From: Paludisphaera rhizosphaerae
Lineage (GTDB): Bacteria > Planctomycetota > Planctomycetia > Isosphaerales > Isosphaeraceae
Assembly: GCF_011065895.1 (NCBI RefSeq)
Contig: NZ_JAALCR010000010.1
Span: forward strand, 186,001-250,000
Direction: 5' to 3'
DNA: 64,000 nt
Every line of letters starts with the position of its first letter. Positions within the stretch are counted from its first letter, which is position 1. The position numbers and the translations under genes were made by a program. The notes beneath the pieces are model-generated. The model did no database searches and was not told the DNA's origin. It saw only the letters and a list, made by a program, of their open reading frames with translations. Shown piece after piece: positions 32,723 to 35,126 of the stretch.

Positions 32723-33001
32723 ATGAACACTGACGAAGCGACCAAGGCCCTGGCCGAAATCTACCTGACCGGCGAGTCGGACACGCGGGCGGAGCGTGAG
32801 GCAGAGTGCCACCTCTGGCAAGCCCGCGAGCGGGCCGAGGCCGAGGACTGGGACACGGCGGATTACTCGCTCGACGCCGCGTACCACGCCCTGGGGGCCG
32901 AGTCGCATCCGGAGGCCACCGCCGACGACCTGAGCCGGAGGAAGCATTCGATCCGCGTCGAAGCGGAGCGGTTGTCGCGGGACGCGTTTGGGGAGGAGTG
33001 A
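32723..33001 (+). CDS. small acidic protein of unknown function
   Basis: A 92-residue protein with GGGAGG upstream of its ATG. The sequence is helical and rich in Glu, Ala and Asp (TGESDTRAEREAECHLWQAR, DWDTADYSLDAAYHALGAES). No hydrophobic segment or known motif is visible. It ends just before the retron-like noncoding region and has the high-G+C codon use of the chromosome, so I infer that it is not part of the retron module. Confidence 0.6.
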   Translation: MNTDEATKALAEIYLTGESDTRAEREAECHLWQARERAEAEDWDTADYSLDAAYHALGAESHPEATADDLSRRKHSIRVEAERLSRDAFGEE

Positions 33002-33025
33002 GGGTTGGCTTCCTCCGATCTCCCA

Positions 33026-33258
33026 GCACGCGCTTGACCGCCACTTAAACTCATGGTTTAATTCCGGAAGTCGATCGAAGCTTCCAAGCCCGCTGCAGAG
33101 CGGAGCCCTTCGGGGCCTGAAACGGTGCGTTCGTTCGGAGTGGCCCGCCTAACACACGGGGCGGTCCGGGCAAGGGGCGCATCGCCGGTTGGAGAGAGCA
33201 GAGGCCGATCCGCGAGCCACCCCGTGTGGTTGGGCGGGACCAAGGCGAAGCGCCGTGC
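33026..33258 (+). ncRNA. candidate retron msr-msd noncoding RNA
   Basis: The gap between a small gene and the retron-like operon holds an ordered set of inverted repeats. A possible a1 GCACGCGCTT (33026-33035) pairs with a2 AAGCGCCGTGC (33248-33258) with one bulged C. Inside are short hairpins: TTAAAC/GTTTAA (33045-33061), GGAAG/CTTCC (33066-33085), CCGCT/AGCGG (33090-33103) and GCCC-TTCG-GGGC (33105-33116). Then a long imperfect stem pairs 33141-33165 with 33216-33242, broken by two single-base bulges, one C-A mismatch and G-U pairs. This is the a1-msr-msd-a2 layout of retrons. The branching guanosine cannot be assigned, and boundaries are approximate. Confidence 0.55.
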
Positions 33259-33328
33259 AGCACTCAGCTGGCGGCATGATGGAGGGACCGAAGGTCGGTT
33301 CCTAGTCGCGTCCTTGGGAGTTGATTCC

Positions 33329-33574
33329 ATGAGTGAATTTAATCGATCGACCGCCAGTAGTTCCGACCTTCGGTACGACGCTGAGATTGGGCTTCTCGCC
33401 GAATTTTGGAGTCGTCTCCGGATCGAGGACGAGCTGGGTGCGACCACATGGGGTGTCTTAGAACCCCTGGAGCGGGAAGTGACCGAGGCATTGCGAAGTG
33501 ATCCGCCGGACATCCGACGGGCCGACGACGCAACCGCCAAAGCCATGTTCCTCATCTCCGGAATCGAGTTCTAA
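33329..33574 (+). CDS. small retron-associated protein of unknown function
   Basis: An 81-residue protein with GGGAG about ten bases upstream of the ATG. It begins MSEFNRSTASSSDLRYDAEI, then has amphipathic helices (LLAEFWSRLRIEDELGATTW and VLEPLEREVTEALRSDPPD). No membrane segment or known domain is seen. It is the first gene of a tight operon with an XRE protein and a reverse transcriptase, and starts about 70 bases after the candidate ncRNA. By analogy with other retrons it may be the effector or part of it; this is inference. Confidence 0.65.
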   Translation: MSEFNRSTASSSDLRYDAEIGLLAEFWSRLRIEDELGATTWGVLEPLEREVTEALRSDPPDIRRADDATAKAMFLISGIEF

Positions 33575-33602
33575 GACACCCCCTCCACTTACGGAGGAGG
33601 AC

Positions 33603-33920
33603 ATGGGCATACCACTAGGAAAGACGTCGCTCTATCTCCGTAACTGCCTCGAACTGAAGCAGAAGGAAATGGCCGAAGCGTTGGGCATCTCGGTCGTCCA
33701 CTACTGCAACATCGAGAACGGGAAATCCGTCCCTTCCGCCGAACTCGTCGACCGATATCGCGATTTGTGGGACGTGGACCTGCACGTCCTGGGTTGGAGT
33801 ATGTTCGGGGACGTGAGCAAGCTGCCCCGCCCGCTCCAGGAATCCGCGGCTAAGCTGGCCGAGCAATGGAAGCGAGAGTTGGCCAAGAAGACCGTCCTAC
33901 AGCGGAGCGGCAACGACTGA
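33603..33920 (+). CDS. XRE/Cro-CI-type helix-turn-helix protein of the retron module
   Basis: A 105-residue protein; the ATG at 33603 follows GGAGGAGG closely. Residues 10-60 form a Cro/CI-type HTH: LYLRNCLELKQKEMAEALGI followed by SVVHYCNIENGKSVPS. The C-terminal 40 residues are a charged helix (PLQESAAKLAEQWKREL). It precedes the reverse transcriptase with only one base between stop and start. It may repress the operon or serve as the toxin or effector that the msDNA controls; some retron types carry HTH accessory proteins. Confidence 0.85.
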   Translation: MGIPLGKTSLYLRNCLELKQKEMAEALGISVVHYCNIENGKSVPSAELVDRYRDLWDVDLHVLGWSMFGDVSKLPRPLQESAAKLAEQWKRELAKKTVLQRSGND

Positions 33921-33921
33921 G

Positions 33922-34914
33922 ATGCTCAACGTCCGGTCGGAGAGATGTCTGGCCGACATATTGGGCGTCACCGTTCACGCGCTGAAGGTCGACCTCGGGC
34001 GCTTGAACCGGGATGTCCGCGAGTTCCAACTGATCGACCCCGCCAGACCGGACAAGGTGCGGGAGGTAATCCAGATCGTCGGGGCCTGGCGCAGACATCT
34101 CGACAGGTTGATGGAGCGGTTGCTCCTGCCCAGGATCACGCCCTCCATCCATAATCACGGAGGGGTGAAGGGTCGGTCGATTTTCACGAACGCATCGGCC
34201 CACGCCGAAAACGTTTACGTCTACACAGCAGACGTTAGAGACTTCTTCCCTTCGATCCATCACCGGCGCGTTTACAGGCTCTTCTTCGGTCGCTTCGGCT
34301 GTTCGCCGGACGTCGCGAGCATCTGCACCCGGCTTTGCACGCACAACTATCACTTGGCGGTCGGACTCCCCTCGAGCCCGCTGCTCGCGGACCAAGCGAT
34401 GCGAGAGGTCGACGAGCGAATCCACGGTGCTTGCCAGTCTGCGGGGCTGACCTACACGCGATTCGTCGACGACCTGACGATCTCGGGAGGATTCGACTTT
34501 GCGGGCAGCGGGTTCCTGAAACTCCTTCCGCGTATCCTCGAGAAGCATGGCTTTCGCTTGAATCCCAGAAAGATCGAGATCGGCCGTCTCGACGACGGGC
34601 CTCAGGTGACGAAGCTGTGGGTCAATAGGGGGCGGCCTGACGTCGCGCGAGAGTTCATTCAAAGGCTTATGGAGCAGATGGAGGACGCCGAACGATTGGC
34701 CAACGGCGGTGATTTCGTGGGCCCATACTTCACGCCGGACCAAATCTACGGTCGCGTTTGCTTCGTACGCTCTATTCGATGGGGCCGAGGCAGAGACTTG
34801 ATGCGACGCTATCGATCGGTGCAGTGGTCGAAGGTCGAAGCGGAAGCCGGGCGTCTCGGGCTCGTGGCAGAGCGGAAGCGCCTCATCCCGAAGCCAAAAG
34901 AAGAAGCCGGTTGA
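33922..34914 (+). CDS. retron-type reverse transcriptase
   Basis: A 330-residue protein, typical for a retron RT without fused domains. SIHNHGGVKGRSIFTNASAH (75-94) matches the retron HGFxxGRSIxxNAxxH block, including the diagnostic NAxxH. VYTADVRDFFPSI gives the first catalytic Asp (104); GLPSSPLLAD is the GxPxSPxxSN-like motif; YTRFVDDLTISG gives Asp183 and Asp184 of the YxDD box, with F in place of Y. The usual VTG triplet, which contacts the msr, reads VTK here (229-231). There is no maturase or integrase domain, so a group II intron protein is unlikely. It is expected to copy the upstream ncRNA into msDNA. Confidence 0.92.
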   Translation: MLNVRSERCLADILGVTVHALKVDLGRLNRDVREFQLIDPARPDKVREVIQIVGAWRRHLDRLMERLLLPRITPSIHNHGGVKGRSIFTNASAHAENVYVYTADVRDFFPSIHHRRVYRLFFGRFGCSPDVASICTRLCTHNYHLAVGLPSSPLLADQAMREVDERIHGACQSAGLTYTRFVDDLTISGGFDFAGSGFLKLLPRILEKHGFRLNPRKIEIGRLDDGPQVTKLWVNRGRPDVAREFIQRLMEQMEDAERLANGGDFVGPYFTPDQIYGRVCFVRSIRWGRGRDLMRRYRSVQWSKVEAEAGRLGLVAERKRLIPKPKEEAG

Positions 34915-34950
34915 ATCGCTCGAACCTAGCCTCAAAGGGCTTCGACCTCA

Positions 34951-35054
34951 GCCCAGTCGGGTCCACTGGGCGGACCTTGTTAGGTCTCATCAGGGTGAAA
35001 AAGTAAGTTCCACCCGGCAAGTACGCCCGACGGAAGTCGGGCATCGCGAGACCT
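34951..35054 (+). terminator. hairpins downstream of the reverse transcriptase
   Basis: GCCCAGT (34951-34957) pairs with ACTGGGC (34965-34971); GCCCGAC (35025-35031) pairs with GTCGGGC (35036-35042) around a GGAA loop; and AGGTCTC (34982-34988) pairs with GAGACCT (35048-35054), enclosing the second hairpin. A run of five A but no T-run is present. They may terminate the retron operon or mark its right boundary. Confidence 0.45.
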
Positions 35055-35126
35055 GATCTTTCGACTGGTCCGCGGTGCAGACCCTATTCCTACTTGCAAT
35101 CGGGGCGGGTTGGTTCTGTCTGTCTC

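What the first reader, a model, noticed from the sequence alone, without database searches (positions are those of the whole stretch)
33026..33258. Candidate msr-msd RNA with a1/a2 arms and a long msd hairpin
The intergenic region shows nested complementarity: GCACGCGCTT (33026-33035) with AAGCGCCGTGC (33248-33258), four short hairpins between, including an AT-only TTAAAC/GTTTAA stem that stands out in this genome and a GCCC-TTCG-GGGC hairpin, then a long stem 33141-33165 with 33216-33242. This order is that of retron ncRNAs and the element sits directly before the operon.
Basis: seen in the sequence. Interest (0 to 1): 0.82.

Follow-up and report, generated by a model that had tools for sequence, protein, structure and literature searches.

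The report
Retron RNA leader, arms re-drawn
In front of a bacterial retron (a reverse-transcriptase system of the anti-virus kind) lies a conserved folded RNA whose real closing arm appears to be the ribosome-binding site of the first gene, so the template RNA and protein synthesis may switch each other off.

Summary
The operon downstream is a type VI retron: small protein O1 (33329-33574), HTH_VI (33603-33920), RT_VI (33922-34914). Reader-type arms do not co-vary (15357 of 20000 permutations as good). The arms that do are 33079-33088 with 33313-33322; the 3' arm contains the Shine-Dalgarno of O1 (0 of 20000; control windows not significant). A covariance model found two leaders outside its training set; it scored three others weakly and two not at all. 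msDNA and the branching G are untested. Boldest reading: the a2 arm is the ribosome-binding site, coupling msDNA synthesis to translation.

The parts
33034..33039 (+). -35-like box TTGACC
   Evidence: TTGAC at this position in 12 of 13 leaders, window included; the generic consensus scan lists no promoter here
33045..33061 (.).
   Evidence: dyad score summed over 13 promoters 75 vs 60.7 sd 3.0 with the spacer shuffled, 0 of 2000; window alone p 0.117
33057..33062 (+). -10-like box TTTAAT, 17 nt after the -35; RNA start predicted near 33069
   Evidence: the start site is inferred
33079..33088 (+). a1 arm AGCTTCCAAG
   Evidence: pairs with 33313-33322; probability 0.84 or more for 9 of 10 pairs, 0.335 for the outermost; permutation test 0 of 20000
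33090..33103 (+). hairpin 1 (CCGCT-GCAG-AGCGG)
   Evidence: 4 of 5 pairs changed on both sides among 8 leaders; covariation score of hairpins 1 and 2 together 0.571 vs 0.223 shuffled, 0 of 500
33105..33116 (+). hairpin 2 (GCCC-UUCG-GGGC)
   Evidence: 96.9% of cells paired among 8 leaders, little variation
33117..33125 (+). conserved CUGAAACGG after hairpin 2
   Evidence: exact in 5 of 13 leaders, a similar 9-mer picked by eye in 7 more, not found in L045
   Evidence: minimum-energy fold of 33069-33331 and pair probabilities; no covariation test possible
33283..33303 (+). last hairpin AGGGACCGA-AGG-TCGGTTCCT before a2
   Evidence: best hairpin in this stretch of 13 leaders: summed score 249 vs 169.2 sd 10.2 (maximum 199.5) in 300 mononucleotide shuffles; window alone p 0.017
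33313..33322 (+). a2 arm CTTGGGAGTT, containing the Shine-Dalgarno GGGAG of O1
   Evidence: six bases before ATG 33329
33329..33574 (+). O1, small protein of 81 aa, predicted three-helix protein
   Evidence: tblastn E below 1e-6 in 8 of 14 homologous loci, by position only or weakly in the others; model mean pLDDT 82.3
33603..33920 (+). HTH (XRE-type) protein, 105 aa, PADLOC HTH_VI
   Evidence: E 5.1e-11; Pfam HTH_3
33922..34914 (+). Reverse transcriptase, 330 aa, best PADLOC model RT_VI
   Evidence: E 2.3e-52; FVDD and NAxxH

Best explanation
The leader 33069-33326 is the msr-msd RNA of a type VI retron and at the same time the 5' untranslated region of its operon (O1-HTH-RT). A promoter at 33034-33062, probably repressed by the operon's own HTH protein through the palindrome (inferred), makes one transcript. 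Its 5' end (a1, 33079-33088) folds back on the stretch just before the O1 start codon (a2, 33313-33322). This closes the RNA; hairpins 1-2 and CUGAAACGG form the msr-like recognition part, and the hairpins of 33122-33303 the template (msd). The RT would bind this fold and copy back from just 5' of a2 (inferred from retrons in general, recalled). Because a2 contains the Shine-Dalgarno of O1, an RNA folded as template cannot start O1 translation (inferred). Supported by comparison: promoter, hairpin 1, a1/a2, last hairpin, operon. Not shown: msDNA, branching G, translation control, defence.
For: PADLOC RT_VI and HTH_VI; all 10 RTs of A1 match RT_VI, as they do other retron RT models; all 8 HTH proteins of A7 match HTH_VI. 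a1/a2 complementarity over 13 leaders: summed score 282.5 against 199.4 sd 12.0 when 3' ends are exchanged between leaders, 0 of 20000 as good; two control windows 4195 and 6515 of 20000. The exchange keeps a Shine-Dalgarno in every control. Own partner is the best of 13 in 7 leaders. The arms were written down, before L053, L054, L079 and L092 were fetched; these rank 1, 1, 2 and 1. Hairpin 1 shows compensatory changes. Model R1 (8 leaders) found two leaders outside its training set in the right place: L079, E 1.3e-5 in 350158 bases, and L086 (same place as L092), E 1.7e-7 in 23460 bases. Fold z-scores of the 13 leaders -1.69 to -7.07.
Against: Own 3' partner ranks only 2-5 of 13 in 6 leaders (L045 and L079 2, L041 3, L042, L044 and L047 5). 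With a wider window L042 and L045 have better a1 partners about 28 and 26 nt before the ATG, clear of the Shine-Dalgarno, so a2 need not be the ribosome-binding site everywhere. Single folds do not show a significant enclosing helix (3-21 of 60 shuffles as good). R1 scores L047, L044 and L045 weakly (E 0.12, 0.94, 4.9) and lists nothing for L048 and L049 at E up to 10; in the class scan it missed 5 of the 9 genomes that have the RT. The msd stem cannot be aligned. No G follows a1 consistently (by eye). Four phage type VI-like loci and a Riemerella plasmid locus show no such arms or motif. The generic promoter scan is empty.
Confidence: 0.7

Rival explanations
1. The leader is only a cis-acting translation switch: a1 masks the Shine-Dalgarno of O1 and the hairpins tune it; the retron's template RNA is elsewhere.
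For: The a2 arm contains the Shine-Dalgarno; no reverse transcription is shown.
Against: The order a1 - short conserved hairpins - variable long hairpins - a2 is that of msr-msd RNAs (recalled). The two strong R1 matches outside training stand directly before the same gene set. No other candidate was seen, but only Rfam and R1 were used to look elsewhere in the window, and both would miss an unknown template.
Confidence: 0.17
2. One reading: the RNA is 33026-33258, closed by GCACGCGCTT/AAGCGCCGTGC, with the TTAAAC/GTTTAA hairpin inside the RNA.
For: It is the minimum-energy fold of that exact stretch, and if the RNA began at 33026 its arms would be favoured over the new ones (p about 0.4 against 0.09).
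Against: The arm overlaps a conserved -35 box; reader-type arms do not co-vary (15357 of 20000; the window's own pair ranks 7 of 13).
Confidence: 0.05
3. The fold is a by-product of a GC-rich genome with no function as RNA.
For: GC-rich leaders fold well anyway; window z only -2.70.
Against: Compensatory changes in hairpin 1 and exchange-tested arms across homologues whose RTs are 31-54% identical.
Confidence: 0.04

Closest known systems
Type VI retrons (PADLOC RT_VI and HTH_VI; [quoted passage not shown]
   Same: RT, HTH gene and small-protein gene in one operon
   Different: Leaders of this group have hairpin 1, GCCC/GGGC hairpin 2, CUGAAACGG and an a2 arm on the Shine-Dalgarno; such arms were not found in four phage type VI-like loci
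msr-msd RNAs of classical retrons (recalled: Ec86 and others)
   Same: a1/a2 inverted repeat, short msr hairpins, variable msd hairpin, upstream of the RT operon
   Different: No constant branching G seen right after a1; a2 coincides with a ribosome-binding site; no Rfam family matches
Type VI-like locus on Riemerella anatipestifer plasmid pRCAD0416RA-1 (L101)
   Same: small protein - HTH - RT gene order
   Different: leader not matched by R1 (best 4.6 bits, wrong strand, in L101 2000-3400)

Membership tests
Retron type VI | RT of the type VI clade | tested here: met
   RT_VI is the best of 70 PADLOC families at E up to 0.01 for the window RT; no tree was built
Retron type VI | HTH gene beside the RT | tested here: met
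   HTH_VI E 5.1e-11; 8 of 8 HTH proteins in A7
Retron type VI | small auxiliary protein gene (as described in PMC8541194) | tested here: met
   O1 and its equivalents; sequence match in 8 of 14 homologues, the rest weak or by position; broken frame in L048
Retron | RT motif NAxxH (recalled) | tested here: met
   NASAH at N90-H94 of the window RT
Retron | RT motif VTG (recalled) | tested here: inconclusive
   VTK in the window RT, ITG in several relatives
Retron | a1/a2 inverted repeat enclosing msr and msd | tested here: met
Retron | conserved branching G near the 3' end of a1 (recalled) | tested here: inconclusive
   no constant G at the a1 boundary in the 13 leaders listed, judged by eye
Retron | production of msDNA by the RT | not testable with these tools
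   needs an experiment
Retron | phage defence | not testable with these tools
   needs an experiment

The most novel reading that the evidence does not exclude
The retron template RNA is a bistable switch: a2 is the ribosome-binding site of the first gene, so while the RT holds or copies the folded RNA the small protein (and by coupling the HTH protein and the RT) is not made; when a phage destroys or displaces the RNA-DNA complex, the freed or newly made transcript is translated. The HTH protein adds a second, transcriptional loop at the promoter palindrome.
Probability: 0.3. Interest if true: 0.75.

Novelty: new variant of a known kind. Interest (0 to 1): 0.52.

Why it matters
If right, the leader gives a concrete template-RNA model for type VI retrons in this bacterial group, with ends that can be cloned and assayed for msDNA, and a simple link between reverse transcription and translation that compensatory changes in the two arms can test.

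Tried and rejected
Rfam: no match at gathering score in the window; three chance-level matches in 33000-33340 (E 0.71, 3.2, 3.9). Whole-leader MAFFT alignment of 12 leaders: too divergent in the msd region for a covariation test. A4 held 11 leaders and misaligned L047; A5 kept 8 of them (L047, L048 and L079 dropped); L044 and L045, with longer hairpins, were in neither. The arm test used 13 of 15 leaders; L048 (contig ends in the leader) and L049 (no promoter or motif found) were dropped. L051 and L052 (RT 50% identical) lie at contig ends and have no leader. Other RT loci without the HTH or O1 match (L001, L055-L057, L059, L060, L080-L083) were left out.

R1 in 397 genomes of the class: 6 genomes with a match at E up to 0.01. 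Four (G000, G011, G633, G736) stand before type VI RTs, and all four are training leaders; the other two (G488, G706) have no RT or O1 nearby, only a 17-residue weak HTH stretch in G706, and are taken as chance. Five genomes with an RT match (G540, G589, G675, G679, G740) had no R1 match. R1 in 339 genomes of the phylum at E up to 0.001: three; G000 and G186 are training leaders, G259 (E 9.4e-4) has no RT or O1 match nearby, only a 28-residue weak HTH stretch. O1: in Pfam 11 families each matched by 1 of 13 members at E 0.024-0.096, none convincing; no PDB fold match at E up to 0.001 (best 2.3). Phage type VI-like loci L105-L108: best arm helix no better than shuffles (98-465 of 500). L102, L103, L104 and L109 were fetched; the first, third and fourth showed other gene sets, L103 has no annotation; none was used.

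Papers: Mestre 2020 and Khan 2024 are not held and are only recalled. Passages were seen of PMC12548924, PMC8934634, PMC12262390, PMC8541194 and PMC13405049. Library searches (listings) showed no description of this leader; that says little, since the main papers could not be read.

Full report
Setting. The genome (G000) is unnamed; its gene content suggests a planctomycete (inference, recalled). Downstream of the finding lie three close genes: O1 (33329-33574), an XRE-type HTH protein (33603-33920) and a reverse transcriptase (33922-34914) (starts refined). PADLOC gives RT_VI as best model for the RT (E 2.3e-52) and HTH_VI for the HTH protein (E 5.1e-11); O1 matches nothing at E up to 0.01 in PADLOC, Pfam or NCBIfam. 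[quoted passage not shown]

Homologues. RT searches of family, phylum, order and class, of other families and a class and of viral contigs gave the relatives used here; nine in alignment A1 are 31-54% identical to the window RT. Fifteen loci, the window included, carry RT and HTH and a small ORF before them. O1 is matched by sequence (tblastn E below 1e-6) in 8 of the 14 others (L041, L042, L044, L049, L050, L053, L079, L092), weakly in L047 (E 0.026), and in L043, L045, L046, L048 and L054 only by position. In L048 the small ORF stops after 56 aa; in L054 it is fused to the HTH protein, which suggests that the two act together. O1 is predicted as three helices (pLDDT 82.3) with no PDB match.

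Promoter. 12 of 13 leaders, window included, have TTGAC at the same place, with a -10-like hexamer, judged by eye, mostly 16-17 nt on; L092 has TTGCAG and L054's -10 is doubtful. The generic scan, which demands A at position 2 of the -10, lists none in 32900-35100. In the window this is TTGACC 33034-33039 and TTTAAT 33057-33062. A palindrome centred there exceeds chance over the 13 promoters taken together (75 against 60.7 sd 3.0; 0 of 2000), but alone it reaches p below 0.05 in only 4 of 13 (L044, L045, L046, L092) and is 0.117 in the window.

Arms. With the RNA started at 33069, the minimum-energy fold closes 33073-33077/33322-33326 and 33080-33088/33313-33321. The 3' arm holds the GGGAG before the O1 ATG. 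If the RNA is started at 33026 instead, the new arms fall to p 0.06-0.09, so the case rests on the promoter and on comparison. Since the leaders share a purine-rich Shine-Dalgarno, the control exchanged 3' ends between leaders: observed 282.5, permuted 199.4 sd 12.0, 0 of 20000. Controls: a1 against 60-90 nt before the ATG, 4195 of 20000; 100-138 nt after the -10 against the last 30 nt, 6515 of 20000; reader-type arms, 15357 of 20000. Own partner ranks first in 7 of 13 (window, L043, L046, L050, L053, L054, L092), second in L045 and L079, third in L041, fifth in L042, L044 and L047. The arms were proposed from seven leaders, before L053, L054, L079 and L092 were seen; the exact windows were set, before L092. 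With a wider window L042 and L045 prefer partners about 28 and 26 nt before the ATG. In single folds from 12 nt after the first base of the -10, an enclosing helix is no rarity in shuffles (3-21 of 60 as good).

Inner part. In A5 (8 leaders) hairpins 1 and 2 are 94.4% paired against 79.7% shuffled; 12 cells change on both sides against 4.2; covariation 0.571 against 0.223 sd 0.052 (0 of 500). 4 of 5 pairs of hairpin 1 change on both sides; hairpin 2 varies little. Slid versions reach at most 60.6% paired and 0.187. The hairpins were noticed before the alignment was made, so the test is not fully independent; by my reading L042, L046 and L050 pair best in a slightly shifted register, and L050's hairpin 2 may be a longer one. 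R1, built on A5, found L079 (E 1.3e-5; this leader had been seen and left out of A5) and L086 (E 1.7e-7; not seen before). L047, L044 and L045 score E 0.12, 0.94 and 4.9; L048 and L049 are not listed. CUGAAACGG follows hairpin 2 exactly in 5 of 13 leaders (window, L041, L044, L079, L092) and in a variant form, picked by eye, in 7 more.

msd part. This region differs in length and sequence between homologues and could not be tested by covariation. A last hairpin stands before a2: summed score over 13 leaders 249 against 169.2 sd 10.2 in mononucleotide shuffles; alone p is below 0.05 in 7 of 13.

Reach. Three-gene type VI-like loci also occur on a Riemerella plasmid and in phages (in L107 and L108 the small ORF is not annotated). 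Their leaders showed no R1 match (L101) and no such arms (L105-L108), so the arrangement is so far seen only in this group of loci.

Verdict. A retron-type leader RNA with corrected ends is the best reading (0.70). On rechecking I lowered it from 0.72 and raised the translation-switch rival from 0.15 to 0.17, because R1 missed five of nine RT-bearing genomes and two leaders prefer arms clear of the Shine-Dalgarno. Reverse transcription, the branching G and the coupling of template folding to O1 translation are inferences to be tested.

Noticed in passing
L054:1723-2328: The O1 equivalent and the HTH protein form one 201-aa frame (TTG start), a natural fusion that hints at joint action.
   Followed up: partly
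L048:3041-3211: The O1 reading frame stops after 56 aa: a broken gene or a sequencing error.
   Followed up: no
L049:3722-4023: Type VI RT, HTH and O1 are present, but no matching promoter or RNA motif was found upstream.
   Followed up: partly
G000:C51:20202-20828 (L030) and G000:C4:292407-293372: Two further RT matches in the window's own genome (E 1.6e-25 and 3.7e-21; the second with one TGA inside).
   Followed up: no
L101:2748-4159: Type VI-like small protein-HTH-RT set on a Riemerella anatipestifer plasmid, next to an IS4351-family transposase and floR.
   Followed up: partly
L107:1569-1715 and L108:502-756: Unannotated small ORFs before the HTH gene in Shewanella phage MuM16-1 and Burkholderia phage KS5, matching the type VI three-gene layout.
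   Followed up: no
L041, about 2429-2743: An ORF made largely of Cys-Pro repeats lies upstream of the homologous retron.
   Followed up: no
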